From: Gracilariopsis chorda | Taxonomy: Eukaryota; Rhodophyta; Florideophyceae; Gracilariales; Gracilariaceae | Assembly (NCBI GenBank): GCA_003194525.1 | Contig: NBIV01000056.1 | Coordinates: 248,001 to 312,000, forward strand | Reading direction: 5' to 3' | DNA length: 64,000 nt | Shown here: positions 28,561-51,563 of the stretch, piece after piece | Position numbering within the stretch: the stretch's first letter is position 1 | Layout: each line of letters begins with the position of its first letter | Translations under genes and position numbers: made by a program | Notes under the pieces: model-generated | What the model saw: only the letters and a program-made list of their open reading frames with translations | Database searches by the model: none | What the model was told of the DNA's origin: nothing

Positions 28561-28724
28561 ATTTGTTTCGCAGGTTGAGTTCTTCTGTTGCTCGCATGTT
28601 TATTTGTTGGCGTTTTCATCTTTTCGCGGCTTTCAGCTACAAGGACACTCTTTTTTTGGCCTGTTGTATCGCTATGTCTGGCCCCCCTTCTTCCACGTCT
28701 TCGTTGGTGTTCTCGTTATGCTAA

Positions 28725-29042
28725 TTTGGCATTCAAAAGGTAAAGAATTAAAATGAACGAATAACGACTCTTCAAACCCAATTTTGAATGAATCAAATTT
28801 CTCAAAATAATTCCATACATAGCACAGAGCTAGTTTGCTTAGGCCAAAAGACTAGCAGTATACTAGACATTTCCCAGTTTCTTTGGAGGTAAAACTAGCG
28901 CCAGACTCCACTAATACCTACCCTCTCAGGTGCACGTGGAATCTAAATCTTACTGGTCCTGAGCGAGTGCCCCTTCAAATAGCAAAATAGAATAGATAGA
29001 ATAGAAAGAATAGATAAATAGCGTTTACATAACCAAATAGCT
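28725..29042. other. AT-rich gap, nothing recognised
   Basis: Only a short GAATAGA-type repeat at about 28989-29020 (aatagatagaatagaaagaatagataaatag) is visible before the next gene. It separates the transposon remains from the C-rich block that begins at 29043. Confidence 0.5.
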
Positions 29043-30494
29043 TTGGCTTTCTATCACCCGTTGCTTGACCTGCTCCCTGCATCACATGCTCTACCCCGCG
29101 CCCTACGAAAAGACGCTCTGCATCACGTGCACCACCTCATCTACGTTCGCCATAATATTACGCTCCCCGATATCCCACTCCGCCACCACCCTCCCTTCTC
29201 TGTTTCCAAACATCCCGTTCTCCGTTCTCCTTCCCCCGCCATGATACCCTGTTGCCATCCCCGTTGCACCTTCTATGGCTGCACCGTGTTCTCTCTCCAG
29301 AGTGACCAATGCAGGTGCCCTCATTGACTCACCCCCGACAAGCGCCCTTCCTCCTCCGCCAACGCTCCCGTCCAGTTCCCTCCAAGGACCAAGCAACGAA
29401 AATCCGTTCCAAACCTCTCCACCATTCCTCCTCCCACTCCCCCACACTGCCCCTCCGACAGCGTCCCCCTCCCCGAAGATGAACCGTATCACATCCAACA
29501 GGCCTCCCTTTCCCTCCAAACACAAGACGCACACCACATGGCAAGTCACGCCCTCTGTTCAGTCTCCTCCTCAAACCCACCTCCCTATACCTCGTCCCAA
29601 TACCCCTCCCCTTTCCTCAACAACCCCCATCTCGAGCAACTCGTTCTCTGCATCTCCTCCATCACTTCCTCCTTCAGCACACGCAAAGCCGATGAACTCA
29701 TCTCCCTTCTCAACCACCCGGACTTCTCCAAGTCAGCCTTCCAGAAATCCATCTCCTTCGCAAAGCAGTGCCTCCCACTCCGATACCACCTCGTCAAGGG
29801 ACGTATCAACTCCACCAGTTTTCTCCCTCTCACAATCTCCGACGAGCACATATCCTTCTCCGCAACTCTCTTCCAAAAAGGCGCCATAGACGTCCTGAAG
29901 CAACAAATCGCTCTCGCACACTTGAACATCATCTTTTTACAACGCTTGTCCCAATCTTCACCTTACTCTTCTTCAAACCCCGCCTTCTCCCATCCTATGT
30001 CCGCAGCATTCGGAAACAAAATGGTTTCTGTCTTGAAGCAGGCCATCACGCAGTGCCACATCAATGATATCGTCTGGCACACCCCCAAAACAAACGGTAT
30101 GGAATCATTCGTCTGTCTCGTCCAGGTATACTCCGATACGTCTGTAACCTCACTCAAAGGCTCCTCCATCACCTCGTACCCCCTTCACATCACCCTTCTC
30201 AAAATTCTCCGACGCATTCCACCGAAAGTGTGTCTCCCCAAACCTCACCCTCCTCGGATAACTCCCAACTTTCTTCTCCCCCTCTTCCTCCCCCGGCGAT
30301 GGATACTCCATCCCGCATTCGTCCTCCAACATCCCACGCAAAACAAGAATGGCCCTCATTCAGCGCGCTATCTCCACAATCTTCCGTTTCGAAGGTATCC
30401 ACAGCGCTACCTTCGCTTCTCTACTCCCATTCCTAGCTATAAAACGCGGTTCACCTTCATCGCAACCTTCATTCTCCAATTCTTTATGATGTAG
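29043..30494 (+). pseudogene. unknown protein, one frame of 484 codons with a single stop
   Basis: One frame runs from ATG 29043 to 30494 and is interrupted only by TGA at 29325-29327. The first part ends in a Cys/His cluster (IPCCHPRCTFYGC, then CRCPH). The middle is Pro/Ser-rich. The C-terminal half is helical and well balanced (KADELISLLNHPDFSKSAF, GAIDVLKQQIALAHLN, NKMVSVLKQAI). After about 30230 another frame (RMALIQRAISTIFRFEG) reads better, so a frameshift is likely near the end. The plus strand is C-rich throughout. No family is recognised. It converges with the minus-strand gene at 30.5-32.6 kb. Confidence 0.45.
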
Positions 30495-30499
30495 TTCTC

Positions 30500-32574
30500 T
30501 CACCCTCTCCCACGCCACCCCAAGTATTTTCTCCACCGCAAGCCGAAGATACTCCCCGTACAACTAGGAAATAACAACTGCCTTCTTCTTCCACGCCCCA
30601 TATCTGTGTCCATTGCTGTCAAAACAAATCTGATCCACGCATCCAAACGAGCCAAAGGCATCACTGTCCCATCAACGTACTCCATCTTTCCCTCCATTTC
30701 CGTATCCACCTCATATCCCATGAATTCTTCCAACACTTCCACCGCAGCCCCGTTCTTGAAGTACATGTCTTCTTCACTAAACTTCTTCAGCCGACCAGTA
30801 ACCTGAAATCCAGAATACGTAAGACCCTTGATTGTTGTCATCCTCCAAGAACATAAACTACCGCTCTTCGCTTCCCCATTCCCCTTGAACTGCGTCTATG
30901 CTTCCTCTAACTGCTTCCTCAACTCAATGTCTAGCCCCATCCCCTCTTGCGGTCTCACACGTCTGGCAATCAATTCATATCCAAGCAACGAAAGCATTTT
31001 GTCCGGTGCCGCACGCTTCCGAATCCCAATCACATCACTCAAATTCTGCTTCATACGGTGTCTCAAACACCTGTCTGCAACAACCTCCGGCACGCATTGA
31101 TCCTTCCTACCCACTTTACGAATCGACTGCCATCTCTCCACTTCAATCTCAACGCCAACCGAGTACTTCAATTGGTCATTACTTCCTCCTCGCGACGAAG
31201 GCATGTACGACTTCATCTCAGACGCGATCTCAAACGGACGGCGAGGCACAATTTCCTTTCCTCCGACAACAAACACACTCCACTCTCTTCCCTTCCTCAA
31301 TAATTTGCATCGATTCTTCCAGTTTCTTTCCACACCCATCGAAGTAAAACAAAACTCCGATACCTCTACCTCCGCATAGTACAACAACCTATCATATAAT
31401 ACCCTGGCAAACCCATGAAAACTCTCTTGCACATCAACAACATACTTCCTACGCCCTCTCAATCCATTTTCACCTTCAGATCCCTTTCTCTCCCCTCTTC
31501 CCACCTTCATCCATTCCCGTAAGCTATCTATTAATATACTCTTCTCGCTAACCTCTTCTCTCATCCTCTTCAGTTCCTCTTGCGTCAGCTTCAGCGACAT
31601 CTTTAGGCGGCAGTGGTCCCCTTTGATCTGTCCGAGTTCTGCCTTCAATATATTGACCCTCTCAACTAACGATGATCGAGAAATCACAACGATGTCGTCA
31701 TTTACTGCATCTACCAAAACATTGACAGGCAGGCTTCGCTCGTCAGCACGTTCACTTGGCGACCGATGAACATTTCATTTTCTCTCTCGCATGCCTTCCA
31801 GAGTTTGCGGCGTTCTGCTTCCTTTATCACTTTCCAAGTTTTCAGCCATTTGCACCTTTCGCGTCCGCACGAGTGTGCTTGTACGGTCTCCGCTTTTCGA
31901 TGCTTCCTGTATTCCATCCGTCGCTCTGACCACCTCTTCCCCTTCTCGCGTTTCTTTTAATTAGGGCAGCGTCCCACTTCTTCGTTTATCATATATCTCG
32001 TCCATCTCTCCTTCACAATGTGATCCTCTTCGTCTCCATCACTTTCTTCCAAAGAGAAATTTAACTCTCCTACATCTCGGTTTCCACTTGGGGCCCCGCC
32101 TCTCTTCAGCGCACCTAACTCTTCTATTTGTTTCCTTCCGGGCATATCTTCATCCTTATTTCGGTCTTCGACCGGCACATTTCCTTTCAATCCTCCCTGA
32201 TCTATTACCTCTTCTGTTCTCCGAACAACGAACCCTTTTCTACCCTCCACTCTACCACCCGACCCGGGCATAGATCGCTGTCCCCGAAACCAATCTCTCC
32301 CGCCCGCTATATGCGCATGGGCATCAGCCTTCAAGTTCTCACTCGTCGTGCGCTCACTCGTCGTGCGCTCGAATCCGACGTTCTTTGCCCCACCTCTTCT
32401 CCCTCTCTTCCAAGCACCTTCTCCTGACCTCTTCCCCGATAATCCAACGCTGGGAAAACATGATTTTGCTTTCGTTCCACTTGCGGTTCGCCCCTCAATA
32501 GCCTTTCGCCGCGTCTTAGGCGCACTCGCCGCACCACCCCTTGCCGGGCCTCGCTTCTTTCCCTTCCGTGCCAT
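30500..32574 (-). pseudogene. unknown nuclear-type protein with coiled coil, broken into four frames
   Basis: The chain starts at an ATG at 32574 inside a 249-codon ORF with a basic leader (MARKGKKRGPARGG) and an acidic end (LEESDGDEEDHIVKERW). It continues at 31917-31711 (KVIKEAERRKLWKACEREN) and at 31717-30896, a 273-codon ORF. That ORF has a clear coiled coil (RVNILKAELGQIKGDHCRLK, LTQEELKRMREEV) followed by a folded-looking region. It ends at 30841-30500 (KFSEEDMYFKNGAAVEVLEE). Each joint needs a frameshift or a short intron. No domain is recognised. It lies head-to-tail upstream of nothing obvious, and the minus-strand SET/MTase genes follow 310 bp away. Confidence 0.45.
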
Positions 32575-32884
32575 TCTTGGAGTCAAACCTCTTGCAAAAG
32601 TGGCTAGTGACGCTCTGGGATGGCGCAAGCCGTGTGTTTTCAGGGAAAATCTCGCCACCCGACGCGCACAAAAATCTTTGCTTTTTGTGAAATATTGAAA
32701 ATACAATCCTTGGTGGTACCCAAAATGGACGTTTCTGTGTCACATCGATATCGCTTTGTATCTTCTATCCCTACTGAAAAGTAATATTGTCCTAAGTTAG
32801 GACTAGATATACGTTCACATAATAAACGAAATCCTTTAGCCAAGCTGTGGAGAACGGTTTATAACAACAAACTAATCAATGACG

Positions 32885-33574
32885 GTCGTTCCATCCTCCA
32901 CATTCAAATGGGCTTGCCAGTCATAAACATTAACTTATCTGGCGAAGAGTTCCTCTCCTTGCTCTATGTTGGCTGCTGCCTCCATCTTAATAAGTTTGTA
33001 GTCCGTTATTCCCCCTGGTGTTCGTCCCACTCCCGGTGTCCATTTCACTCGCAAATTAGCTTCCCTTTTTTCACGAGGCCATCCACCATGGCATCTAACT
33101 GTTTATCCCGTTTGACGTACTTTGGATGGTTGATATACCCCGCAATCCAAAAAGGGGGAACGAACCACCCATAAAATGGGGTTTGCTTGTTTTCCATGCC
33201 AATTCGTCAGCTGTTTTCGATGCGGGAATGATTGGAACTGTTGACCGTAGACTTCTATCTCCACCACATACTTCCGGAAGCGATCCTTCGTCACACCCAT
33301 GACTCCCTCCCGTAGGTCTTGTGCATTTCTTTCCAATTCGAAAGGTCATGATAAACCAACATCCCGTAGAAATAGAACACTACCTCCCCTGCAGCAATTC
33401 GACGAGTTGCAAACACTCCAACACCAGCCTTTTCGTGACGAATAGTAGACTTGCCCACTCGCAACCCATATTGGACAGCCTCCATTGCCAATAGAGACTT
33501 CATGTTCTCCAGATTCATTCTTCCTTGCAGCTCACTCGGCCATCCATCCATAGCTTTATTCCTTCCCAACTATC
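32885..33574 (-). pseudogene. SET domain, second (degenerate) copy
   Basis: The frame 33569-33291 reads MDGWPSELQGRMNLENMK and AGVGVFATRRIAAGEVV, then LVYHDLSNWKEMHKTYG, matching the first copy. After about 33291 the match continues in other frames (AGYINHPKYVKRDKQLDAMV near 33120) down to about 32890. It has no methyltransferase domain in front and several frame breaks, so it is a leftover of the tandem duplication. Confidence 0.75.
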
Positions 33575-34264
33575 GTCCCATCCTCCACATTCAAATGGGT
33601 TTGCCAGTCATAAACATCACCGTATCTGGCGAAGAGTTCCTCTCCTTGATCTAGGTCGGCTTTCCCCTCCATCTTAATACGTTTGTAGTCCGGTATTCCC
33701 CCTGGTGTTCGTCCTAATCCCGGTGTCCGTTTCATTCGCACATTAGCCTCCCTTTTTTTTCACGAGGCCATCTATCATGGCATCTAACTGTATATCCCCT
33801 TTCACGTACTTTGGATTGTTGATATAACCCGCAATACAAAATGGGGCAAGAACCACCCCTTAAAATGGGGTTTGCTTGTTTTCCATGCCACATTGTCAGC
33901 TGTTTTCGATAAGGAAGTGATTGTAACTGTTGACCGTAGACTTCTATCTCCACCGCATACTTCTGGAAGCGATCCTTTGTCACACCCATGACTCCCTCCC
34001 CGTACGTGTTGTGCACTTCTTTCTGATTCGAAAGGTCATGATAAACCAACGTCCCGTAGAAATAGCACACTACCTCGCCTGCTGCAATTCGACGAGTTGC
34101 AAACACTCCAACACCAGCCTTTTGGTGACGAGTAGTAGACTTGCCCACTCCCATCTCATATTGAACAGCCTCCTTTGCCAATAGAGACTTCATGTTATCC
34201 AGATTCATTCTTCCCTGCAGCTCCCTCGGCCATCCATCCATAGCTTTCTTCCTTCCCAACTTTT
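33575..34264 (-). pseudogene. SET domain joined to the methyltransferase, first copy
   Basis: Residues about 141-314 of the ORF 34676-33732 hold a SET-type fold. AGVGVFATRRIAAGEVVCYF is the N-terminal glycine-rich AdoMet-binding strand, and LVYHDLSN follows. In a second frame come AGYINNPKYVKGDIQLDAMI and, after a frameshift near 33750, EANVRM and GEELFARYGDVYDW, the C-terminal GEEL-x-x-x-YG block. SET domains transfer methyl groups to lysine, usually in chromatin proteins. The usual NHSCxPN motif is replaced by GYINNPKY...ANVRM. Here it is fused or directly continuous with a DNA-type methyltransferase. Confidence 0.7.
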
Positions 34265-34439
34265 CTAGAATTTTACTTTGCCAAAAAGTGGAGAGAGAGT
34301 CGACAAGGTGTGAGGGAAGAATTTGGTGCGGTGGGAATCCGTCGACAGCCCTCCATAACACGGTGTGCCTGCTTCTTCCCATTGGGAATGCAGAGGAAAC
34401 ACAATGGGTAATCTTTCGAAGCTCCTGGCTCTTCTCAAT

Positions 34440-35411
34440 ATCCGTGTGTCCTTCGCGTATTATGGAAGCGAAGCGAACAATAGTGGCATGCCTGGCGTGT
34501 TCAAAGCAAGCTTTCTTCATTTCACACCCCACAAACGTCCGATGCTTGGGCAGTTCCATGCACGCCATCGCTGTCGAGAACGTTCCGGCAAACATGTCGA
34601 CCACGAGGTCTCCTGGCTGACCGAAACTGCAAATCAGCTCTCTCAACAGTGTCCTACACTTCTGTTCCGGTCCCACCCTCTTCCTCGTATACTTCCCATC
34701 CGTGTTTTTTCACAGACCACATGAGCTTCTCACTATTTGACATCGGCGGCGCCTGATCCATGATTGCATGATACGCAGGGTATCGTGAAGCAACATAGTT
34801 GAAGTTCTCATAGTTGACCATCCGGTGCTGTTGTGCATAAGGAGCTCCAGAACGAACAGCATGTACAGCGTATTCTGTTGTCTGGTGCAACCGGCAACTT
34901 CTTCTCCCAACGTTACCCGTCGTATTACCTAAAGACCATACGAAATGGAGGTGCTGTTCGTCGACGACAAAGGAGTAACGCATCGTATCACAGTCATCCA
35001 TGTAGGTAACTTTCCATAGCACATCCTGCCACAACGGTACCTGATCCCATGAGCAGAACTGTATATATTTCCACCAGGACGTATAAGCTTTGACGACCTC
35101 CTTGCTGACCTGCTCATGCACTTCTCTGTCCGAATATCGTGTTCGCTGTTCTCCAAACGACGCTCAGAACGAGTCCCATATGGCGGATCGGAAAGCAGAA
35201 ACTGTACCCTTCCTTCAATAGATACCTCGCTTTCGCCAGACTTGTTGTCGTCAACCTCGATGAGATTTTCGAACTTGCAGTTGTGGAGACGGAAGTTTCG
35301 GGACATTTCCTTCTCAAAATACTTGTAAGCTATCACATCGTCCAAAGTGGTAGGGTACGGTGGTGCATGAATCCCCGTGCCTTCGACCTCATACGATAAG
35401 TTCTGCGACAA
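34440..35411 (-). pseudogene. N6-adenine/N4-cytosine-type DNA methyltransferase, beta class
   Basis: The ORF 35411-34929 carries GRVQFLLSDPPYGTR, with the catalytic DPPY at 35189-35178. A frameshift near 35110 leads into ORF 35121-34654 (WWKYIQFCSWDQVPLWQDVL, NYENFNYVASRYPAYHAI), which fits the target-recognition region. The ORF starting at 34676 then gives RTLLRELICSFGQPGDLVVD and MFAGTFSTAMA, the AdoMet-binding motif I. Catalytic motif before motif I is the order of beta-class amino-methyltransferases (N6_N4_Mtase family). DPPY is intact, while motif I is altered (FAGTFS for FAGSGT). Two frameshifts make this copy doubtful as an active enzyme. Confidence 0.75.
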
Positions 35412-35471
35412 AGCTGTTGTCTGCAGTCCTTCAGTGGCCTTTGGTGCAGTACCACGTTCCGCAGTACCACT

Positions 35472-36053
35472 TTACGCATCCTTTACCATCTCTATCTCTT
35501 CCAGTTCTTCCAACTCACCCTGATCACCACCTTCCACACGCTCAGCACGTTCGTTCCCACCACCAGCCGTACCAGCTTCTACCGGCTCCATAATGATGTC
35601 AACGTCTTCTGTGCGCTCTGATTTCACAGCTTGATGTACTTTGACCTTGCTTCCATGCCATACAATGAGCTTCAGAGGCTTTATGGCTTCTTGAACCGTA
35701 GTGACAAGAGATTCACTAAAGTTCTCAAACCACAGAGGGAAAAGTCTCGTTCTCGTGATGATGAACCTTTTGAGGGCATCCCATTTGCTGGGAGCAGAGA
35801 TGTCAAACAGTTTCTCTTGTACCACCAAATTAGAAAGGTCACCAAGGTATTCTTTGGCACAAATGCGAAGGGCTGTATCCACTGGGTCCGGCAGATTCCG
35901 TGCCCATTTGTTAACGTTTTCTTCTACGGTGGTGACGTTCTTCTCCTCCACAAACTGTTTGGAACAATCTTTGTGTTGGAAGCCCATGGAGCGTTGTGCG
36001 ATATTGGTGAAGACTACACTGATATTGTCGAGTCGAATGTAAGGCAAGATCAT
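35472..36053 (-). pseudogene. unknown segment upstream of the methyltransferase
   Basis: A 193-codon frame reads through VEENVNKWARNLPDPVDTAL, KWDALKRFIITRTRLFPLWF and VQEAIKPLKLIVWHGSKVKV. It ends in an acidic tail (GELEELEEIEMVKDA). No family is recognised. It sits between another unknown segment (36096-36679) and the methyltransferase on the same strand with only short gaps, so all may be one long broken polypeptide. Confidence 0.5.
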
Positions 36054-36095
36054 AACCTCAACGTTGGGAAACCCGAGGAATTGGGCGAAACAATC

Positions 36096-36679
36096 CTAAG
36101 ACCTGGTCACCAGCTGCACACCATACCCGACTCTCTGACTCTGGGTCTTGTCCGACAAACTCACCTTCGAGAACTTCTTAGCTGCCATGCCCCTTTTCCT
36201 CTTCATACCACTTCCTCTCCTATCCACGGCAATCTGTTGCACCATAGACAACCCAATGAACATTGCAAAGTCGGTGCAAGGATCCGTGTGGAAAGCCGAA
36301 GATTTCTTGGTTGCTCCCAGAACATGGGACTTGCAAGAGACAGATAGCAACACGTTACGGTGAATTCTTTTAAGCCCTTCCCTTTTACAATAAACCTTCC
36401 AAAAGTCCCTTACACGCCTGTCTTCTTCACAGTCCTTTACGTCCACCACTCTTGCCATAAGATAGAGTTGACGTGGAGGGCCTCTGAATGCCATGTTACG
36501 GAGCTCGGAGTCCGAAGACGAGATGTAATCCGGTCCGATGAGAGTGAGAAACACTTTCTTGGCAGAGTCATGAACGTTGCGACTTTGTACCGCGAACTCC
36601 ACAAGGTCGGTGTGCTTCAAACTTTTAGGCTCATCCACATTTTGCCTCGTCGCTGCGTAGTCATCACGAACTGCAAGAT
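36096..36679 (-). pseudogene. unknown N-terminal segment of the methyltransferase/SET gene set
   Basis: The frame opens after a TAG at about 36690 with LIDAYLAVRDDYAATRQNVD and has no ATG near its start, so its true beginning may lie in another frame or exon. It continues through DSAKKVFLTLIGPDYISSSD and CTDFAMFIGLSMVQQIAV, with basic patches (MKRKRG). No domain is recognised. It is the gene part nearest the palindrome array, about 85 bp away, and is read away from it. Confidence 0.45.
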
Positions 36680-36762
36680 AAGCATCAATAAGCTATTCTC
36701 CGGTTCCGTGCGTCTTGAATGAACCCGTTTCTTTCGGATTATGTTTCTCTTCGTTTTGGGTC

Positions 36763-37025
36763 GAGGACCGTGGTCCGTGGTGTCATGGTGCTCCATCGCG
36801 ATTACAATGGAGCACCAGGCATGATGTTTAATTTGAATTTCGCGTCCTGGCACTCCATCGTAATCGCGATGGAGCGCCCGGCATGAATTTTAATTAAATT
36901 TTCGCGTCCTGGCGCTCCATCGTAATCGCGATGGAGCGCCAGGCATGAATTTTAATTGAAATGTTGGGTCCTGGTGCTCCATCGTAATCGCGATGGAGCA
37001 CAACCACACCCTGGACCACGGACCT
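36763..37025. repeat. array of four palindromes, 62-bp period, between divergent genes
   Basis: Four palindromes with stems around CTCCAT/ATGGAG start their CTCCAT core at 36791, 36853, 36915 and 36977, an exact 62-bp period. The third is perfect: arms CCTGGCGCTCCAT and ATGGAGCGCCAGG around loop CGTAATCGCG. The first has the loop inverted (CGCGATTACA), and the others share CGTAATCGCG. Spacers are AT-rich (GCATGAATTTTAATTAAATT). An outer inverted repeat (GAGGxCCGTGGTCC at 36763 and its complement ending at 37025) encloses the array. It lies between the divergent methyltransferase/SET and ParB-like genes and probably acts as a shared operator, promoter or protein-binding centre. Confidence 0.85.
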
Positions 37026-37317
37026 CTACCAAAAAATTAACAAACTCTTTTGCAATGCAAGTAATTGGGAGGGGAATTGCAGGGATGCTACGTTGACGAC
37101 AATGGATGTCATGAAAACGATATATAGTGCTTACTTCCATCTCTTCGGAACCAAGCATACGTGATCACGGGAGTATTTGACGTCAGCGGGTGCCAAGAAA
37201 ACGCAAGCGCGACCTTTGAAGTACTTAGCCATAGATTCCACTGGGAATAAGGTAAACACGCCATCACGGAAATGGACTCCGAGGAAGCCTGTTTCGGCAA
37301 AGAGACGTGTTATAGAC

Positions 37318-39948
37318 ATGTCGACCACGCGAGGCAAAGCGAAGAGCCGGGGCGCCACCCAAACTGCCAGCCACCCTGAGCCATCAATTGGGGGCAATAC
37401 CGGTCAGGTGCTTAAGGGCAATGCGGAGGTCAATCTGTTCGTACGAGTTGGGAGTAGTGATGCAAAGGTGAAGGTGGGGGAGGCGAAATTGCGCGGTGTG
37501 CGTTGCTGCGGGGCCGGGTACAAGACTCTGTCGTTCACTACGCAACCATCCCCTGTCCTCTACGCAGAGATCTAGGGAGGACGTGGTGGTTATCTTTAAG
37601 ACAAACATTTCGTCACACCAAGATGAGAAGTACCCTTATGTTTTTGGAGGTCCCGAGGAACCGCCTGCAACTATGAAGGAGATGGTTTCAGCGGGTTTAT
37701 ATGCATGGGACACTGCGATGATGAGTGTCACAAATGAAGGCGGAGAGGGGAATGAGTCGGTTCCACCGCAGTCAGGAGCAAATGGGAAGACTGTCCACAG
37801 AATTACAGCTTCCAGGACCACTGTGAGACAAGTCAAGTGCCTTCCCGCTGTTGTGGTACACCATCAAGCGTTTTGGTGACCAAAGCGCCGGTGAGGAGCC
37901 TTGAGAGCGGTGGAGAGGCTCCGGTGAAAACCCGTCAGAGTGGTGGAGGAACATCAGGTGCTCTCGTGGGCGGCTCTGGAAACCAAGGAGGCCCTGAAGT
38001 CGGAGCAAGCTCCAATGATGACGTCATAGAGGTGCCTGTACTCTACAGGAACAATCTTGATCCGGAGGAGAGGGTTTTATATGATGACAGTGATGCTGTT
38101 CCTTCGGAAGAGGTGGATAACAGTTTGGGTGTCTTAGACATCAATCGAGATGATTATGACCAGCAAAATTGCGTAATCGATATCCACAACATTCAATTTC
38201 TGAAGAACATGGTGCGTTCGAAGAATGACAAACATCTTCAAGATACTTCGAACAAACTGAGGAAATTCGGAAGGCTCCCTTCTCTTGGGTTGATTGCGGT
38301 GGCTCTGTTGGAGGGTGTGCCGGTTCGTGACGCTATTGATGCGAGTGGGCGTTTGATTGTTCCTGTGGTTTTAGTGGATGGCTTCCATCGAGTGAGTGTT
38401 CTACTGGACCTCGAGCAGGATGGTGCGAAATGGGCACGGATTACTGCTGGTTTGAACGTCACGCTTTGGGAACGGAACCACGGCCGGAGAATGACATTAA
38501 ATGAGGTGTTGTGGCTGGGGAAGACGTTGAATGATTTGAGCTCCAATGTTCTGGTGATGTCCTTCGCAGATAAGATTCACACTGCTGTTTCGTTTATTCG
38601 TAATGGCGTAGAGCAGGATGGGTATGATCTGTCAAAGCTTAAACCAAGCCAAATCACGGGGTTGTTGTGGAGCAGTGAGACGAACGGGAAAGAAGGGAAG
38701 ATACGTCATTTCAATCGCCATTCTGCTCTTACTCTGAAGTTTGCGTGTAGTCCCGGTCTGTTAGAGTTATTCGATGTGGTGTGGCAGGAAATGCCTCAAA
38801 TTGGAATAACTCATGTGTCTAGTGATATTCTGCTTGGAATGTCAGGGGATACGTTTTGTTTTACTATCCAATGTCTACAGGCGCATGTTCGAATGAGGTC
38901 GGCGGCCACTGTGAAGATGGGACCGTTTGAGGGTTTCCGAAAGTACTTCTTCGACTGTGCTTCTAGAACGTATGACACTTGCAGTGAGCTGGGGAGTTCC
39001 ATGAAGAAGAAAAAGAATGTACAGGAAGTGATGAATACCACAGTTGCCATCGGCAATTCTGACCAGACTATGTCAAATTATATCACATCTCGTCTGGGGA
39101 AGTGGTATACGAAAGGGAAACGCAGTTCACTGGAGTCCAGAGTGAGTAATAAGGTGAAAGAGGCTCGTAGGACGTTTTCCAGCGCTTTGCCGGGCATGCA
39201 GAGACAGGATGCTACTGCTGCTGCTCCCTCTGTGGCCGATGTGGACGTGATCGAGTTGCTTGGTCTGAATGAGGAAGCTGCTCAGGAGCCTCTGAAAGCT
39301 GACCAGGATCCTCGAAGAAGTAAGAGAATCTCAAAGAAGCGTAAAGTGGAGGTCCTGGACGAAGATGAAGATGAAGAGTCAGTTGATTTTGAGCCACCGG
39401 TGAAGAGGCAGAGACCATCGAATCGTAAGCCGATTGCACCTGATGTGAAGCGGCTTGGCTTTGGTATCTCTCAGGAGGTGATGGGGGTGCTGCGTAGTAT
39501 GGAAAGGGGAGATTTGAAAAGGTGGTTGACAGCAAAGGAGATCATTGTGCTCGAGTCCAGCGAGGATGAAGCTCAAGAGAACTTCGTGGATGATGAGGAA
39601 GACGAGGCAGAGGAGCACCAAACCGCAGGCAGCTTTGACGATAAGAATCCTGACAAGCTTCCAGCTGGCTTAAGTACGCCAGGAGAACTGGCTATGGGAG
39701 TGGACATGTCTTGCGTGGACCTGGTATACTCTTTGCTTAGTGAGTGGCGTGCAACCGGAAATGCAGTGAAGCATTCCCATCCATGGATGCAGAGGATAAA
39801 TCTGAGAAAGCACCATCGGAAGGACTGCCTATCACCTGATGACTTCCAAATGGTTCATCATACTGTGTACTGGCGTGCGTCACGCAACATGCACAAAGAG
39901 ATAGGTACTACGACACGTGCAGTGCTGGGCGTGAAGATGGGGTCGTGA
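37318..39948 (+). pseudogene. ParB/sulfiredoxin-like nuclear protein
   Basis: The chain starts at ATG 37318 (MSTTRGKAKSRG), shifts frame near 37575 (DVVVIFKTNISS, EKYPYVFGGPEE) and back near 37860 into a 703-codon open frame ending at 39948. That frame holds a core of about 200 residues with GRLIVPVVLVDGFHRVSVL. The DGFHR block is the ParB/Srx-fold signature, here at residues 181-185. Later come a nuclear localisation signal (SKRISKKRKVEV), acidic tracts (DEDEDEES, DDEEDEAEE) and a conserved-looking C-terminal domain (PWMQRINLRKHHRKDC). ParB-fold proteins bind specific palindromic sites or act as nucleases. A frameshift before 39946 would add a charged tail to about 40042. The two breaks could also be explained by an intron. 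Confidence 0.65.
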
Positions 39949-40241
39949 AAAGGAGGTTGGAGGAGACGGACGAAGAAAGATTGGAGGTTAAGAGTCGGTT
40001 GAAGAGGAGGCATGGAAAGAGGGAAGCGGGAGAAGAAGGGTAGTGATGTTTAGGAGTGTCGTTGAGGCTGTTAGTACGACGGAATGGGTGGTATTGGAAT
40101 CTGATGCGCGGTGCGTCGGGTGTGTGAGAACGGAGAGAGCTGCCCAGATGAGTTCCTGAGGATGAGTTGGAAGTCAGACTAGGGCAGTATTAAGTTTGAA
40201 ATTCAAAAGATGGAAATAAAAATGTTATTTTTGGTTGGGTG

Positions 40242-40284
40242 CTCGAAATGGCACTGGCCGCTGCGCAGCCAGCGCCATTTCGAG
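40242..40284. repeat. 17-bp hairpin downstream of the ParB-like gene
   Basis: Left arm CTCGAAATGGCACTGGC (40242-40258) and right arm GCCAGCGCCATTTCGAG (40268-40284) pair with one mismatch around a 9-nt loop. It is about 300 bp after the ParB-like stop. It could be an element end or an RNA 3'-end structure. Confidence 0.7.
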
Positions 40285-43200
40285 ATCTGTATCTAGCCTT
40301 TAGCGGAGAATGAACTTGCTCCAAACTTGAAACTAGCGATGCGCAATGCAGGTGAGGCAAGGCTCTGTAAGATATGGAAGTGTGAATTCCAAAAATATTT
40401 TTTTTACTTGGCAAGCGCCAGAAACTACCATAATCTATCATTTTCGTAGTATTTTTGAGCTTTTGCCTAAGAAACTTGCAATCTAGCACCTCTATCTAGC
40501 ATTCCGAGAACACCGACGTTGTGATGACGCCCACAATTACGTTTCGGTTTCCCTGGGAACCCTACCAAAAAACCTATTTGGCTCTACTCATAGCTTACCA
40601 TAGCAATCCCGTGCACACGCCAAGAAATTGTGGGGAACGGTTCAGTCACGGTGTCAATTTGGTAGTTTAATACTCTCTACGCATGTTCTGTGGAGAAAGA
40701 CCTGTGCATTTTCTGCTTGCTACAGTATCATTTTATTTGTATACCTGCGTTGGAATGGGTTCAAATCTACATCATTCGACTAGTCCATAATAGTTTTACA
40801 AACGAGGATCTTTTGTGCCTTACCGACGTTTCCAAGCATATGTTTTAAGTTCAGCAACGTCTATCACCCCACTAGATCTTTACTGTTTCCTACCTTGCGA
40901 GGAACTATACGTAAGAAAGCGCTCCAAACCATTGGCTTCATGACCTGGCACTCGATGCTCTTTACGGCCGAGTGAGCTATACATGCAACCCTTCAATCGG
41001 TCTCTCTGACCATTTTATGGCTTGTATGGGCATTCCGCAGCTTCAACAACTCGTATTACACTGATATTCTGCTGTGCATTATCCTACAAAAACATAACTT
41101 TGAAACTAATACCAGTGGAAATACACTATACTATTTCGATATGATATAGATAAAGATGTAGCAGAATGTATATACTTCCAATTTACCTCAGATGAAGTAT
41201 TGATATATTGTTCATTCCGGAAGCATGTATGCGTGCCTATCGCGCAAGAACCCGATACATATGTCTCATGTTTTTGATATCGTTTGAAACATTTTCAGAT
41301 ATAGGAAATTTTGAAATATATTGAACGAATATCAAAATCTCATGAAAACTGTACCAGTGCGTACCAGCATTATACCACGTTTATATCTTGAGCGTATCAA
41401 ACATATCATCGGCAATACTATTTACATTTCAATCAATGGTCACTTAGGTATCAGCCACGCATCATAACTATGCATTCCCACCATATCTGTTCTATATCAA
41501 AACGATATCTTGACTTTCTACTTGGTATTGGTCAAAACGTCTTCAAATGAGCACAGTTATTGATGTATGTTTGGGCCAGTTGAATTCGAAACATTGTGCA
41601 TTTTCTGAGTGCGGTGAGCAGCGTACGCGTAATCTAGAAGTTCATCAACGTCTACCACATCACCAGTGGCAGGCTGCTCTGTTTTCTGAACTGTCCTGTC
41701 AGCAAGCTTCAGTTCCAAACCACTTTTTCACGTGATGTTAAACGCTTCTTACGGCCATGGCCCTCTGCTCCACTCTTTAATCGCTTGAGATGCGCAGTGT
41801 ACTATTCGTACGCATATTTGCCCAGATCTTACACGTCTGTTTCCGTGTTTCTGATACGCTTTACTCTTCCTTGTGCCCAAAATTCTCGTTGAAGCCAGAA
41901 CGTTGCCCAAATGTGGCGACAATGTGCGCTATCCTGGTATTTAGAACAACAATGATGTCCAAATCTATAAAAATGTAGATTACTTACAGTAAGACGGAAA
42001 GACCCCAAGATGTTGCTTTTATAATGATATGAATCTTTAAAAAATCCAAATTACCCACATCTCAACCATAATCTAGGCATTCCCTGTTTCATATGACGCA
42101 AATAAGTTCTCTTGAATACCGTTTTTATCGGGTATGCTTCGGAGGCGCACTGTGTTCGGTAACCATTTTCGTTGCACTATGGAGGCCATTCTCGTGGCTC
42201 ATAGTGTTAATGCCTCACATTTTGTGTTGCTTGTATCATAAAGAATGAATCGAGACGATACGATTCTGTGCTAATCAAGATTGACATGATTCTTGGCACC
42301 GGCAAACTTCATTCCAGCCCCCACATTTTCCATAACTGAAATCAACGTTTTCATACTACGTTCTGTACTACGTTTGTCAGTAGCAACACTGAACTCTGAG
42401 TGAACAAGTAAATATCAGCCTTCTTGTTGTATGTGAATGCTGCTCATGATAAGAGGCATCCTTTTCCCAGAACACAATGAGTCAAAAATTCTCTATAGTT
42501 TTACTTCAATTGTTTCAAAATGTTTGCAGGCACCTCTGCGGGTTTTTGGGACCCCATAATTCAATTATTATGCTCTAGAATACGTAATAGCTCGTATTTA
42601 CACTACAAAAGACACCCCGTTAAGATTTAGGGGTTCCGAGAAAACTCCTGGTAATAATAGGAGTGCATTTGGACGGTGCACAGCTGTTCTGGATGAAGTT
42701 CGGAAGCTAACTGGAGGCCATCCCGAGTTCTCAGCATCTCTCCTTCGGCCCTCGATGCTCGGTTTCCAAATTGATGGTGCAAGGAGCGCAAGCGGTACGC
42801 GGAGAGAGTGCTGTCTACAAAGTTTGCATTTAATTTGCACCAGGACTGCAACATTTTGTAATTTTCCACACTTTATTTGCAATCCGCACGACATCCGGAA
42901 AATAAGAAAAGTCCATTGATTGCGCGAGAGGTGGTCTATTTCGAGGATACAAGGCGTTCTGCGTGAACCCCAATGGCCTATCAGACCCTTCAATATTGCA
43001 CTCTGACTGCACTCCTCAAATTCCAAGCATTTGCTTTAGGGGTGCTGTATGGAGCCACGAAAACAGTCTTGACAGAGAGATATTGTGGATAAAAATCTAG
43101 AATTGAGTGTAGCAACGTGCAATTAGTTTAAAAACGACTGAGCTCCAGACGGGGATAAATATTGGCTACCGATGTACGGGCATTTGATTTTGCTATGGTG

Positions 43201-43857
43201 ACAATGGCAGTTGGAAGCGGGTAGTGATCAAGACCGTGGACAATATTGCTCTAAGATATCAGTGATTTTAGTGGCCATGTGAATTCCAAGATGTTTCTTA
43301 GTTTCTGGAGACATGAGAGCATCTCCTTTAGAAAACAATTTCAATCAACACAGGCCAGAATGCGTAAAATCTTCTTCGCGTGCTTCAAAACCTCGTTACA
43401 AAGTCCAAAATTGACTCTCAACTGGTACCATTGATTTTACATACACCGCAACCGGCCACACGGGCAACTGGTTGATCCAACCACCATGGTGGCATGAACT
43501 TCTTTGGCTTCTTTTTCAAGGAAGAGAACAGCGGTGAACCCAGGAAAGTATTCTGGACGCAAATGTTGTCGCAGTTCTTGATGTTCTTTAAAGATGAATA
43601 AAACCCTGACGATGTGCCTCTCGAAAACCTCCTAAACTTATAGGAATCATGCAAGCATTCATCACTTTTATATGTTGAAACCTCCCCTCCAGCATTTAAA
43701 ATATTTGAAAAAATTCCTTTATTTTGCGAAAGTCTCTAGTAGTCTTCGAGAAGCGTCAACCGAGAAAGCATCAGAGCAAACCAACGCCACCGCTACCTTT
43801 CAGCGTTAAATAGGTATCTTATTGACCCACTTCAAGTGGCGGAGTTGCTAGGTCTTT
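40285..43857. other. 3.5 kb without a recognisable gene
   Basis: AT-rich sequence with only short ORFs. A 142-codon minus-strand ORF at 42598-43026 is the longest, without recognisable domains. No tRNA, LTR pair or transposase remains could be identified. The chromovirus similarity begins abruptly at about 43858. Confidence 0.5.
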
Positions 43858-44650
43858 TTGGGTGGTATTATCATCTTCTCCAATAATTTGGACGAACATC
43901 TCACCCATGTCAGGGAGGTTTTCTCAGTAGTCTGTGATGCGGGAATTGCTCTCAAGCTGAGGAAGTGCGACTGCCTCACTGAGAAGGTGAAGAATCTGGG
44001 ACATACTATCCATCCGGGATGGTGGATGATCGAGAAAGCTCGAGTCAAATGCCTTGTTGAGGCCTCAACCAGGAGTTCTTCGTGGGGCTGGTCAAGGTTT
44101 ACCTACGGTCTACCCAGAACATTTTGGGCATCGCACCAACTTTAAACGCGTTTCTACCTGAAGAACATGCCTCAAAATTGGGACAGTTGACCCTCAGGCA
44201 ATCGGAAGCGTTTAAATTTATAAAGGAGGCTGTCACGTCAGCATCCATCTTATCCTTACCCAAAGTGGGACCTACGTACTCTAGGAACACGGAAGTGTGC
44301 CACAACCAAGTTGGTTGTGCTCTTATCCAAGTGCCTCCGACGAGGACCGAAAACCAGTTGGATATTGGTAGGGCTCGCTCAATATCCACGAGCGAAATTA
44401 CTATGTCTCGGAGAAAGAGTGAATCGCCGTCGTTTGGGCACTTTGCACTCTACGCGCCTATCTTATGGGAGTGCATTTCACCGTATAGACGGATGGCTCT
44501 TCGTTGAGGTGGCTAATGAGTATCACCGATCCGTCAGGCCGCCTTATGCGCTGGAGACACGCCTTGCTGAATAATGCTTCCAAGTCATATATTAAAATGA
44601 TGCTCTCAAAACCCACACCAACGCTTTGTCGCGTTTACACAAAAAAGCAG
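43858..44650 (+). pseudogene. chromovirus RT C-terminus and RNase H
   Basis: 43858-44145 reads GGIIIFSNNLDEHLTHVREV and LKLRKCDCLTEKVKNLGHTI, the end of gypsy RT. The YxDD box itself lies before the break. 44082-44507 carries the linker and RNase H start (CALIQVPPTRTENQ). In another frame SEKE-stop-IAVVWALCTLRAYLMGVHFTVY follows near 44410-44490, and GRLMRWRHALLNN at about 44540-44580 closes the domain. At least three frameshifts are needed. Confidence 0.75.
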
Positions 44651-47973: not shown

Positions 47974-49916
47974 TTAACCCGCTCCGCGGAGGAAGCGGTC
48001 AATGGCATCGCTTTCATTCACGGTACCCCCGCTGGGAAGTGAAGGTCTGGCGCTTGCCATCGGAGGACTGGGAACCGGAGGCACCCCCTCGGGAGATGCG
48101 TCTACGACCATGTCAGCAACATCTAGTTCCATGTCCCCCGGCTCTTTGGGTTTGCTATCAACCATCAGGTTATCCCCGCTATACGCGCGGTAGTAATCGT
48201 CGGAATCAACGTACCCAATCGGGTGGTCGTTCGGCACGTGCTGCGGTGCGTCGCGGAGTTCCCTCGCCTCCTCGAAGGAATCTCCTGGAACTCCCAGGGA
48301 TCAAAGTAGATGAAATCTACCGCGAGGGCGGTGTTTCTACCAAGACCCGGACCACTGGTACCACCACCACCGCCGTCAAGCCGACCGCTCTGTTCCAGCG
48401 AATCCTCGCTCCAGTTAATACTGTCGATCAAACCAAGTAATTGGAGTACTTCATCATGGGTGGCAATACCCCCAGGGGAGACACTGAGGCCCAGATTGCC
48501 AATAGTGGCCCGCACACGCGGTTGGATGAACCACAGTCGATACTGGTCATAAACCTCCGGGAGGATATACGCTGCAGTGCGGGCAGCCCACCCGGTTACA
48601 ATTACTGACCAAAGCCCTGACCGGGGATCCTGCATCAAAAAGGAGCAGAGGTACGTCCGTGCCAGCGGGAGCTCAACGTAGCAACCCCGGCAGTCCTCGT
48701 GAAACCTCTAGTATTCAGGGAGTGCGACGTCCCGACCCTGTCGGTGAGGCGGAGCCATCCGCTCAATCTCCATGTTTTGATACTGGACAAAGTACGCAAG
48801 TCAGGATCGCCAGCGCCGTTCATGACGGATGAAGTTTTGGCGGAAGTTGGACCGGGAATGCCGTGGAAGGTACCGTATTTCAGCCCGAAGTATCGGTCGT
48901 TCCCAATACAAGGCTTCTTGCCGCGCAGCGGGAAAGTCACTCCACACAAGGGATTTGAGGCTGGCCAGGCGTCCGCTGAAACCGATTTCACTGCACGTGC
49001 GAAATAGGCTGACGTCGAAGCCAAAGCCAGTAGGCAGCGAGGATTCGAAAGCCTCCCGGCTCTGCTGTTGATATTCGATCCGCACCAGCGCCGCATGAGC
49101 TGCAGTCGCTGATTCTCCCGAGTCTCTTCGGAAATGGTGCAGTGGGACGGCGATTCGATGCCGCCAGTCCCACGAAGAGGTGACGAGGCTGGGTAGATCC
49201 CCAGGCAGGGTACCGGAACCATCTGCGTAGGCCCTTACCAGATCCTCGTCGAGGGCAGCCATGGGATGGAACCACGACGCAAGCCAGAGCCGCAAAGCGT
49301 GACTTCGACTCATCGGATCTAACCCTACGAGGGCATTATAAGAAGGCCAAGTCGCCGCCGGGATCAGTCCGAAAGGAGCCACCGCTGGTGGAAGTTGGAA
49401 CTCATGTTGGGACACTGTGCCAATGTTGGCCGGCTCTGCTGGAGTTCGCCTTTATTGTGGGAAGGGTACCGACTGGAAACTGGTTGTAAAGTTACCGACT
49501 GGAGTCGGTCTTGGAGGCTGGTTGTCGTTGTTGTTCATATTCCCCTTCGAAAGGGTGTGATCTGACTGATTTGAGTAAGAAGGAGAAGAGCTTGCACTTG
49601 TGGAAGGCTGGTTCGCTGCTTTCGCAGGAGGTTGTTTTTCTGAGGCCGAGGTTTGAACTGGTGACCCGGAGAGTTTTTGACCTTTATCACCCATTTTCTG
49701 CTGGGATTCGCCCGCGTTCGCGGTTGCTTCCTCGACTAAGGAAGGTGATATGAAGTGCAATGCCATCAGGGAGGTAGTCTTGGTACTTAGCTGATTTCCC
49801 CAATTTTGCGGTAATGTAGTCATTGCGTGAACTACGACCACTAATAGTGGATTTGACACGTGGGACACGGAAGAGTGAATTGGCGGTTGGCCACAGTAGT
49901 GGGCATGAACCACCAA
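47974..49916 (-). pseudogene. antisense ORF chain beside the chromovirus, unknown product
   Basis: On the minus strand, four frames join into about 640 codons. 49916-49452 is a Ser/Gln/Pro-rich leader. 49415-48801 gives 204 codons with LRLWLASWFHPMAALDEDLV and WDWRHRIAVPLHHFRRDSGE. Then 48800-48640 shifts frame, and 48638-48165 reads WAARTAAYILPEVYDQYRLW and LLGLIDSINWSEDSLEQSG. 48237-47974 is an acidic tail (DMELDVADMVVDASPEG). No domain is recognised. It could be the gag of another retroelement on the minus strand or an extra antisense gene of the chromovirus, which ends 290 bp away. Confidence 0.5.
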
Positions 49917-50484
49917 AGTGGAGTAGTTTAGTTAAATCTATTTATTATTTTTACATCCATTTCTGGGACGGTTAGTAATCAGTGCGCTGGGGAGTTGCCG
50001 TAGCACCAGTAAACCTTCCCCAACAGAGGACCCGAACCTGAGGAATTGGCTCTAAACTTCACCGCCTTCGTGTGTTTTCTACTCTTCCTTGGAGGGAAGC
50101 ACCGTATCATACCGAGCTTCTAGACACCTTGGCCATCTAAAGGACCGGGTATTTGGATTGTTATTTCAACTGTCTTGGTGTCCGCCTTGTATAAGATTTA
50201 TTTACTGGCAATGCCGTTAGTCTTGGTCAAGACAATCGTGACTCAGCTCGCTCTTATTCTTCCCTTTACAGAGTGGCTTTCCCACTACCGACGGCCCGTG
50301 TTCGCTGGTGCCACCAACTTGGAAATCTCACGTCTCTAGAGAACGATCACCCCCATACACTGCTCCTGCGGATACCCGATTCTTGCCTCAACCTTCCTGC
50401 GCAAGTTGCGACGGGTGGCCTCGGTCTTACAACCCGACATCGTCATGCCACTCCTGGGAGTGCTCTACCCAGCTGGGCTCACCT
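49917..50484. other. no gene recognised between the ORF chain and the Harbinger relic
   Basis: The stretch holds a plausible retroelement terminal region by position (just upstream of the minus-strand ORF chain), but no repeat of it exists in the window to prove an LTR. Short plus-strand ORFs at 50273-50589 have no recognisable domain. Confidence 0.35.
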
Positions 50485-51563
50485 CTAAAGAGGAAAGATC
50501 CAGAACATCCCTCGGTGCACTCCCGCTTCCGGGCATTGCAATACAATAAGTATCCCAAACACTTGCTCACTACTCACAAGACAAGATGAATGATACGAGT
50601 TGAATGAATCTTCTCTTCGCGTTTCACCACGCCCCGCATATGGTGTGATAACTTGATTATATTTTGAATAAGCTTCATTGGCCACAACCGTAGCCCACTC
50701 AGGTAGAAAATCACTGTTCAGAAATCCATGTAGTGCCGTAGCTGTACATGCTGTTGAATCATATGTGTTACCTGCATGACGTTGAGACAAAACAAAACTT
50801 GTAATCAGTTTTAACAGCAGCCTCAACGCATATGGCAATAAAAAGCTCCATGGTATAATACTTGCGTGGATCAGGAACGTCTTTGAAAAAGATCGTCGAC
50901 GAATTCCTATAGCACTTCCGTCCAACTGTGAAATAACCCCGTCAAATGGCGAATTTCGTAGCTTTTGAAACTTTGTCGCGTTTGATACGCACTATTTGTT
51001 TTTTGAAGGAAATTGATTCTGAGGCAAACCCTTGTCGAAAGCAAGAAGCTTTTTGTTAAAAACATATGAAAAGTAGACTCTGCAATTATATAAGGCCACC
51101 AAACATCTAAATAACTTGCTGCAGCGATTAATCGAAGAGAAAAGAAAACCATTATTTTCATCGATATAGATGCTCTAATAAAAGCATGAGTAAGGTGATA
51201 TCGCACTAGTTTGGAGCATACTACTTTCAGTAGTTTCCTGAACTGTGTCTTTGACAAGCGATACAGTCCTTGAAATTTAAAGTGTGATAGATTTGCTTCA
51301 TGTGTTGGAAAATGGAACCAGAATATTTGCAAAACCGTGAAAAAAGGGCTGCTGAATCTACATATTTCACCGCATATAGAAATCAAGATCACAGAAACGA
51401 CAGCTGTATTTGAATGTCTCAGTTCTTGAACATTTTCATACTGCTTCGCACAATCTCTGCGACGGCGCGAAGACCGAATTTTTAAGGTTTGGCGAGGTTT
51501 CCACGGCATGACCAGAGTTTGGGATGTATTGAGTTGCAATGTCTCAGACAACGAATGCAACAC
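50485..51563 (-). pseudogene. PIF/Harbinger-like DDE transposase relic
   Basis: The 218-codon ORF 51563-50907 reads YRLSKTQFRKLLKVVCSKLV and a helix-rich region, as in the N-terminal half of Harbinger transposases. The second ORF (50925-50485) begins LDGSAIGIRRRS (first catalytic Asp). It continues with RHAGNTYDSTACTATALHGF (second Asp block), ANEAYSKYNQVITPYAGRG and SFNSYHSSCLVSSEQVFGIL, where Glu precedes xxFG, matching the DDE_4 order. Frames are broken between and within the ORFs, and no terminal repeats were found. Confidence 0.65.

What the first reader, a model, noticed from the sequence alone, without database searches (positions are those of the whole stretch)
33556..39948. Divergent DNA-methyltransferase/SET and ParB-like gene pair around a palindromic centre: a candidate new element
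A beta-class amino-methyltransferase continuous with a SET domain and two unknown segments reads away from a palindromic array on one side. A ParB/sulfiredoxin-like protein with a nuclear signal and acidic tracts reads away on the other. In bacteria and phages, ParB-fold proteins often neighbour DNA methyltransferases. Finding this pair in a eukaryotic nucleus, with a SET domain and a likely shared site, suggests a selfish or mobile element that marks DNA and chromatin. I know no named transposon family with this gene set.
Basis: partly seen in the sequence, partly recalled or inferred. Interest (0 to 1): 0.88.

Follow-up and report, generated by a model that had tools for sequence, protein, structure and literature searches.

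The report
Giant algal transposon writing chromatin marks
The gene pair is cargo of a large jumping gene, probably in a red alga, that carries its own DNA- and histone-marking enzyme next to a possible DNA-binding protein, which would let one mobile element set the chromatin state of its own copies.

Summary
The divergent pair is real. It is the inner part of an 11.8-kb degenerate DNA transposon at window 28702-40518, with 22-bp terminal inverted repeats and a TT duplication. Sister copies C550 and C332 (about 18.3 kb, one end estimated) together show four genes: ParB-like, open frame 1417 aa; palindromic centre; N6/N4-methyltransferase-SET fusion, 1060 aa (intact in C332, split in C550); coiled-coil protein, 539 aa; convergent Plavaka transposase, 1118 aa (PF18759, 76.8 bits). 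Three copies read at both ends have 2-bp duplications (TT, TC, TA). In this 91-Mb genome 51 of 60 ParB-like loci face a methyltransferase divergently; 77 of 113 Plavaka loci face it convergently; none showed another orientation, the rest had no hit in range. Palindromes persist while their sequences differ between subfamilies. The only relative named with an organism is from Chondrus crispus, so the host is probably a red alga (inferred). ParB is only suggestive: right register in profile alignment, but no named Pfam, PHROG or PDB match. That protein's C-terminus shows an H-x-D...H...R pattern like 2-oxoglutarate dioxygenases (unproven). Likely role: marking the element's own chromatin. Plavaka is a known kind; none of ten paper searches found this gene set.

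The parts
28700..28701 (.). left copy of the 2-bp target-site duplication (TT)
   Evidence: flank read; right copy at 40519-40520
28702..28723 (+). left terminal inverted repeat CGTTGGTGTTCTCGTTATGCTA
   Evidence: 86% identical to the reverse complement of 40497-40518; near-identical sequence at the ends of sister copies
29145..30384 (+). remnant of the Plavaka transposase gene (aa 1-415 of 1118, two frames, rest not found)
   Evidence: tblastn 62-63% identity to the C550 transposase, which matches PF18759 at 2.2e-21
30378..31774 (-). remnant of the coiled-coil gene (aa 25-488 of 539, two frames)
   Evidence: tblastn 61-63%
32875..36728 (-). N6/N4-MTase-SET gene (aa 19-1060 of 1060, broken): DPPY segment in ORF 34929-35471, FAG motif and SET start in ORF 33732-34709
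   Evidence: Pfam; tblastn to the open 1060-aa relative; motifs in the relative
32886..34261 (.). ~690-bp tandem duplication inside the SET part (two copies 89-92% identical), absent from the sister loci compared
36754..37035 (.). palindromic centre: four 30-36-bp palindromes in 62-bp tandem with outer GGACCGTGGTCC (36765) and GGACCACGGACC (37013)
37246..39939 (+). ParB-like gene, aa 58-1035 of the 1401 compared (DGFHR core at about 38377; basic NLS-like and acidic tracts near 39.3-39.6 kb by reading), C-terminal part missing
   Evidence: ORF; tblastn to C550; breakpoint
39940..40518 (.). subterminal region shared with L002 and L008
   Evidence: both alignments end at 40518
40497..40518 (-). 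right terminal inverted repeat TAGCATTCCGAGAACACCGACG
40519..40520 (.). right copy of the 2-bp target-site duplication (TT)

Best explanation
SHOWN: the pair is cargo of a large Plavaka-type transposon with terminal inverted repeats and 2-bp target-site duplications; 126 MTase loci were counted in this genome, many of them degenerate. Gene order is ParB-like (reverse), palindromic centre, MTase-SET, coiled-coil protein, then the convergent Plavaka transposase. INFERRED: the transposase moves the element, and the cargo is a self-marking device. The ParB-like protein binds the palindromes of its own subfamily and loads on the element. The MTase-SET protein, made from the same centre, adds methyl groups to DNA bases and to a histone there. 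The combined mark sets the chromatin state of element copies, most likely keeping them expressed or hidden from host silencing. My split: Plavaka transposon carrying this cargo 0.95; cargo acts on the element's own chromatin 0.5; ParB-like protein binds the palindromes 0.45; net effect is anti-silencing rather than silencing 0.35.
For: Transposase PF18759 at 2.2e-21. Terminal repeats and duplications TT, TC, TA in 3 of 3 copies read at both ends. 77 of 113 Plavaka loci convergent with an MTase hit at 1-7 kb, 0 in another orientation, 36 without a hit within 10 kb; 12 of 15 divergent-subfamily contigs that I checked by name are among the 77. 51 of 60 ParB-like loci divergent from the MTase at 0.7-3.0 kb, 0 otherwise, 9 without. 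The same divergent pair with a different palindrome array in a subfamily whose ParB-like core is 34% identical to that of C332. Codon comparison between subfamilies A and B: dN/dS 0.13-0.33 for all four genes (dS 0.64-1.44, so near saturation). C332 and C550 are 99.7-99.8% identical over 8.7 kb with different flanks, so these are separate, recent insertions. MTase: PF01555 3.6e-18, PHROG DNA methyltransferase 1.5e-22, DPPY before FAG (beta order); SET 2.2e-4, and SET is listed for 15 of 29 relatives. Precedents: a captured bacterial amino-MTase coupled to SETDB1 in bdelloid rotifers (PMC8885841, abstract and passages); fungal Plavaka carrying TET/JBP dioxygenases (PMC12730594, passages).
Against: No activity, expression or methylation data. 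SET is just under Pfam's cut-off in the open copy (22.0 vs 22.4 bits) and shows IND where canonical SET domains have NH (recalled). The ParB fold is not proven: no named ParB match in Pfam, PHROGs, NCBIfam or PDB (best weak PHROG hit is an unnamed family at E 0.011), phage hits only at E 6, PF02195 0 of 1 in this genome, low-confidence fold (pLDDT 46.8) without a PDB match at E <= 0.001, and in global mode the profile alignment barely beats the best shuffle (9.56 vs 9.52). Binding of the palindromes is untested. In 14 subfamily C contigs checked no Plavaka hit lies near the subfamily C MTase. No copy that I read has all four genes open: C550 has a split MTase-SET, C332 a stop inside the ParB-like gene and a shortened transposase frame.
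Confidence: 0.6

Rival explanations
1. Self-limitation: the MTase-SET and ParB-like pair silences element copies (copy-number control, truce with the host), as bdelloid N4CMT with SETDB1 does for transposons, rather than protecting them.
For: The closest functional precedent is silencing (PMC8885841). Subfamily A is abundant and many of its listed copies carry stops.
Against: A young subfamily with stop-free MTase segments coexists with the cargo (67-68% rows; 99.7-99.8% identity). A purely self-silencing cargo is hard to keep under purifying selection (dN/dS 0.13-0.33).
Confidence: 0.25
2. Methylation timing of transposition, as Dam methylation does for bacterial Tn10/IS10 (recalled): the mark controls when the transposase acts on the ends, and SET and ParB-like proteins are accessory.
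For: An adenine/cytosine amino-MTase linked to a transposase at 77 of 113 Plavaka loci.
Against: The 22-bp terminal repeat holds no GATC or GANTC (by reading); the recognition site is unknown. Does not explain the SET domain or the central palindromes.
Confidence: 0.12
3. The palindromic centre is only a bidirectional promoter or a transposase/replication hairpin site; the '-DGxHR-' protein is not ParB-like and has another role.
For: It lies exactly between two divergent genes. No named database hit for ParB; first small profile test not significant.
Against: Profile-profile alignment puts strand, NPR-like R, helix and DGxHR on the ParB motif in register: local score 22.06 against 17.16 for the best of 60 column shuffles and 13.3 reversed. 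The palindrome sequences change between subfamilies together with the proteins while palindromy is kept.
Confidence: 0.35
4. The pair is a host chromatin gene cluster that was merely copied or hitch-hiked, not transposon cargo.
For: Some copies lack the transposase or one of the pair.
Against: Terminal repeats and a 2-bp duplication enclose the whole gene set in the window copy; internal-deletion derivatives C34 and C232 keep both ends.
Confidence: 0.02

Closest known systems
[quoted passage not shown] PMC12730594, passages read)
   Same: PF18759 transposase with CPRC (C2C) and HLLDH (H3H) motifs; terminal inverted repeats; 2-bp duplications; some fungal families carry an epigenetic enzyme (TET/JBP).
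   Different: Termini 5'-CG..CG-3' instead of TGT..ACA (PlavakaA) or CATCA..TGATG (PlavakaB); cargo is an MTase-SET fusion, a ParB-like protein and a coiled-coil protein; host probably a red alga.
Plavaka giant repeats of Amoebidium (PMC11244446, passages read)
   Same: Large, cargo-rich units with a Plavaka transposase; [quoted passage not shown]
   Different: Their cargo is tyrosine recombinase genes in tandem clusters, up to 50 kb; no MTase-SET described in the passages I read.
Bdelloid rotifer N4CMT with SETDB1 (PMC8885841, abstract and passages read)
   Same: Captured PF01555 amino-MTase tied to histone lysine methylation and transposons.
   Different: A host gene with a chromodomain and an SPPY motif, separate from SETDB1; here DPPY, SET fused in one protein, and carried by the transposon itself.
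HarbingerS and MuDR SET transposons of Phytophthora (named in a passage of PMC12730594; the reports themselves not seen)
   Same: SET histone methyltransferase as transposon cargo.
   Different: Other transposase superfamilies; no DNA MTase or ParB-like partner mentioned in the passage.
Bacterial ParB/parS and mobile elements carrying ParB-like plus MTase genes (F plasmid leading region)
   Same: ParB-family protein and a DNA methylase on one mobile element (about 4.7 kb apart in F); P1 parS is an array of ParB sites.
   Different: No terminal repeats or transposase linkage; ParB membership of the algal protein not established.

Membership tests
Plavaka transposon | transposase matches the Plavaka profile | tested here: met
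   PF18759, 76.8 bits vs cut-off 26.3; 12 of 12 listed database relatives carry PF18759
[quoted passage not shown]
   CPRC at 468 and HLLDH at 746 of 1118 are present, but their position relative to the catalytic residues was not checked
Plavaka transposon | terminal inverted repeats with 2-3-bp target-site duplications | tested here: met
   TT, TC, TA in 3 of 3 copies with both ends read
Plavaka transposon | termini TGT..ACA (PlavakaA) or CATCA..TGATG (PlavakaB); CA..TG in most of CMCT | tested here: not met
   termini are CG..CG; so not PlavakaA or PlavakaB as published, but a separate lineage or variant
beta-class N6/N4 DNA methyltransferase | PF01555 with DPPY (motif IV) before FxG (motif I) | tested here: met
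   PF01555 3.6e-18; DPPY 519, FAGT 718; PF01555 listed for 29 of 29 relatives
SET domain | profile match and catalytic tyrosine motif | tested here: inconclusive
   22.0 vs 22.4 bits in L059; P0003 28.5 and P0013 26.4 bits pass, P0029 20.5 does not; listed for 15 of 29 relatives; GDEIFSEYG present, NH motif replaced by IND
ParB/Srx fold | significant match to ParB_N | tested here: inconclusive
   hhalign local E 0.007, Prob 5.4%, 0 of 60 shuffles as high; global 9.56 vs best shuffle 9.52, Prob 0.5%; an earlier, smaller reference gave E 0.097; HMM searches negative
ParB/Srx fold | CTP or NTP binding and specific palindrome binding | not testable with these tools
   needs protein
2-oxoglutarate Fe(II) dioxygenase (C-terminus of the ParB-like protein) | double-stranded beta-helix with HxD...H...R | tested here: inconclusive
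   HTD at 1223, H 1298, R 1314 in P0043; R and distal H invariant in 4 of 4, first H in 3 of 4 aligned copies; no Pfam or PDB match; model pLDDT 35

The most novel reading that the evidence does not exclude
One transposon carries a complete locus-specific read-write-erase circuit. A ParB-type DNA clamp, loaded at subfamily-specific palindromes ('parS' of a eukaryotic transposon), carries at its C-terminus a 2-oxoglutarate dioxygenase that can remove base methylation, while the divergent MTase-SET fusion writes base methylation and a histone mark on the same copies. The palindrome and clamp co-diversify, so each subfamily addresses only its own copies.
Probability: 0.2. Interest if true: 0.88.

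Novelty: new variant of a known kind. Interest (0 to 1): 0.64.

Why it matters
If the inference holds, a eukaryotic transposon encodes in one polypeptide both a DNA-base writer and a histone writer, with a bacterial-type site-binding partner. That would give a direct system to test how a genomic parasite sets its own epigenetic state, and whether amino-methylation of DNA (m6A or m4C) has a role in red algae, on which my paper searches found no report. It also parallels the capture of TET/JBP erasers by fungal Plavaka elements, suggesting that these transposons repeatedly pick up epigenetic enzymes. The palindromes that keep their symmetry but not their sequence make site-protein co-evolution testable at once.

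Tried and rejected
ParB by HMM: Pfam, NCBIfam, PHROGs and PDB sequence searches gave no named ParB match; tblastn to phages gave 2 records at E 6. ParB by fold: AF2 on an 11-row alignment gave pLDDT 46.8 and Foldseek nothing at E <= 0.001. First hhalign with 15 references was not significant (E 0.097); the larger reference of 44 gave the suggestive local result and a marginal global one, so two references were tried. Of three viral-contig scans for ParB references, one gave 1 locus, not used. Dioxygenase: Pfam, PDB and phage searches gave nothing convincing, AF2 pLDDT 35; kept as a motif-level guess. Host gene cluster or chance adjacency: rejected by the termini and the genome-wide order. Rfam over the window: 0 matches at gathering threshold. 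Ten paper searches (88 nearly repeats 36) gave no listing or passage describing this element; only the held open-licence library was searched, and I saw no Repbase report. I recall, without a check, that red-algal expansions of such MTases may have been noted in reviews of adenine methylation.

Counts: the lists were typed. Further fragment rows of loci already listed were left out; one search also left out the distant N-terminal rows (added, apart from a few fragments). ParB-like hits within 3 kb, MTase hits within 4 kb and Plavaka hits within 2.5 kb on one strand were merged to loci. One search's own table was cut off, one search lists the first 100 of 120 places (99 distinct), and the gene lists leave out subfamily B and some fragments. 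All searches of G000 score only the best candidates, so copy numbers are lower bounds. For one search the alignment was trimmed to 163 columns.
Full report
The observation. The window holds, on the minus strand, pieces of an N6/N4 DNA methyltransferase followed by the start of a SET domain (33735-34709: PF01555 E 3.7e-10, SET E 0.0023) and, on the plus strand, a 730-aa ORF without Pfam match (37756-39948). Between them is a 62-bp tandem of four palindromes. The core pattern occurs 120 times in the genome with up to two mismatches, against 0 for the backward-read control; 97 of 99 distinct listed places lie within 4 kb of one of the two genes, 52 of them between a detected pair.

It is larger than reported. 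Sister copies showed where homology ends: L002 and L008 both stop at window 40518. The 22 bases there recur inverted at 28702, 86% identical. The flanking dinucleotide is TT on both sides. Two young copies read at both ends have TC (C34, 7,228 bp) and TA (C232, 7,985 bp). So 28702-40518 (11,817 bp) is one transposon copy. The negative GC skew from 29 to 37 kb and its reversal after 37 kb fit that span. Seven other end windows that I fetched by estimate showed no terminus, as those copies differ in length or the contig ends.

Gene content. Copy C550 is nearly complete in length; its left end lies about 0.2 kb beyond the contig start, so I estimate 18.3 kb from the C34 alignment. It encodes a ParB-like protein (1401 aa read in L060, open frame 1417). 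The open MTase-SET of 1060 aa is read from sister copy C332; in C550 that gene is split over two frames, and in C332 the ParB-like gene has a stop. C550 further encodes a 539-aa coiled-coil-like protein and a convergent 1118-aa protein that matches the Plavaka transposase profile (PF18759, 2.2e-21), with CPRC and HLLDH motifs. Twelve listed database relatives of the transposase all carry PF18759. Aligned to these proteins, the window copy keeps aa 1-415 of the transposase, 25-488 of the coiled-coil protein, 19-1060 of MTase-SET (broken, with a duplicated SET part) and 58-1035 of the ParB-like protein. None of the four is intact.

Genome-wide order. From the listed hits I formed 60 ParB-like loci: 51 have an MTase hit 0.7-3.0 kb away in divergent orientation, none in another orientation, 9 have none within 12 kb. 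Of 126 MTase loci 75 have no ParB-like hit; the three of these that I read were deletion derivatives (C34, C232) or a divergent pair that the first search missed (C637). Of 113 Plavaka loci, 77 have the MTase convergent at 1.0-7.0 kb, none otherwise, 36 have none within 10 kb. Twelve of 15 contigs of a divergent subfamily checked by name (MTase N-terminus 29-34% identical to the window's) show the same convergence. Against this: in 14 subfamily C contigs no Plavaka hit lies near the subfamily C MTase, so these may have lost or replaced the transposase, or it is too divergent.

Palindromes keep symmetry, not sequence. Subfamily A (window): four units of 30-36 bp. Subfamily B (C550): two near-perfect palindromes of 90 and 94 bp (45- and 47-base arms). 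Subfamily C (C637): cores with 13-19-base arms inside about 80-bp palindromes, spaced 215-255 bp. A and B share an outer GGWCCRYGGWCC motif; C lacks it. Twenty shuffles of each stretch reached arms of at most 12, 12 and 11. The ParB-like cores of C332 and C637 are 34% identical. This is what co-evolving site and binder would look like, but it is not proof.

Selection and age. Codon comparisons between A and B give dN/dS 0.13-0.33 in all four genes, with dS 0.64-1.44. C332 and C550 are 99.7-99.8% identical over their shared 8.7 kb and have different flanks. So the element was maintained as a coding unit and moved recently, while many A copies decay.

What the ParB-like protein is. D and G of the DGxHR core are invariant and H and R nearly so over 13 aligned rows from several subfamilies. 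Profile HMM searches found no named ParB. Profile-profile alignment of the 13-row core to 44 ParB_N sequences gave local score 22.06, E 0.007 and low probability (5.4%), in the expected register; 0 of 60 column shuffles scored as high (best 17.16), reversed 13.3. In global mode the margin was tiny (9.56 against 9.52). A smaller reference had given E 0.097. I call it ParB-like, unproven. Its C-terminal 390 aa, missing in the window copy but present in many sister copies, hold HTD...H...R, with H 73 residues after the D and R 16 after that H, as in 2-oxoglutarate dioxygenases (recalled); no search supported this.

MTase-SET relatives. 29 proteins matched at E <= 0.001 among the candidates scored; PF01555 is listed for 29 and SET for 15 of them. 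One bears an organism name: adenine specific DNA methyltransferase of Chondrus crispus (36% identity). Five of the 29 were rescanned: all match PF01555, and SET passes its cut-off in two. The host is probably a red alga; this is an inference from that one name.

Mechanism. Most likely the element marks its own chromatin: ParB-like protein on palindromes, MTase-SET writing base and histone methylation. Precedent for coupling of an amino-MTase to histone methylation comes from bdelloid rotifers (PMC8885841, abstract and passages); precedent for epigenetic cargo on Plavaka from fungi (PMC12730594, passages); cargo-rich Plavaka units from Amoebidium (PMC11244446, passages). Whether the mark protects or silences the copies is open.

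Literature. Ten searches of the open library listed no paper that I could recognise as describing this element; most listed papers were seen as listings only. A 2025 survey of eukaryotic 6mA (PMC12695648, term search only) holds 0 occurrences of 'red alga' and 'rhodophyt' in its main text.

Noticed in passing
window 43852-44145 (+): ORF that reads like a Ty3/gypsy reverse transcriptase piece (motif recalled, not searched), about 3.3 kb right of the element.
   Followed up: no
window 49751-50554 and L063:1850-2674: A second repeated sequence, 71-74% identical, beside the C34 element copy as well as in this window.
   Followed up: no
window 799-997 and L066:3439-3637: The sequence just outside the C332 element copy matches another part of the window at 68%: insertion into or beside an older repeat.
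   Followed up: no
window 32886-34261: 690-bp tandem duplication whose halves are only about 90% identical, suggesting exchange between two diverged element copies rather than a simple recent duplication.
   Followed up: partly
window 40242-40284: 20-nt inverted repeat (90%) with a 3-nt loop in the subterminal region of the element.
   Followed up: no
G000 C637, C58, C378, C539, C379, C236: Subfamily C has the divergent pair (read in C637) but no Plavaka domain was found near its MTase: a different or very divergent transposase may be there.
   Followed up: partly
G000:C6:13305-13378: Two core palindromes 50 bp apart with neither listed gene within 4 kb: a remnant or a separate binding site.
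   Followed up: no
P0028 and P0029: Two longer MTase relatives (1450 and 1487 aa) with the MTase domain starting only near residue 719-745: possible further fusions.
   Followed up: no
L093:9167-9850 and 14539-16497 (F plasmid): DNA methylase and ParB-domain protein lie in the same leading region of the F plasmid, a bacterial parallel to the pair.
   Followed up: no
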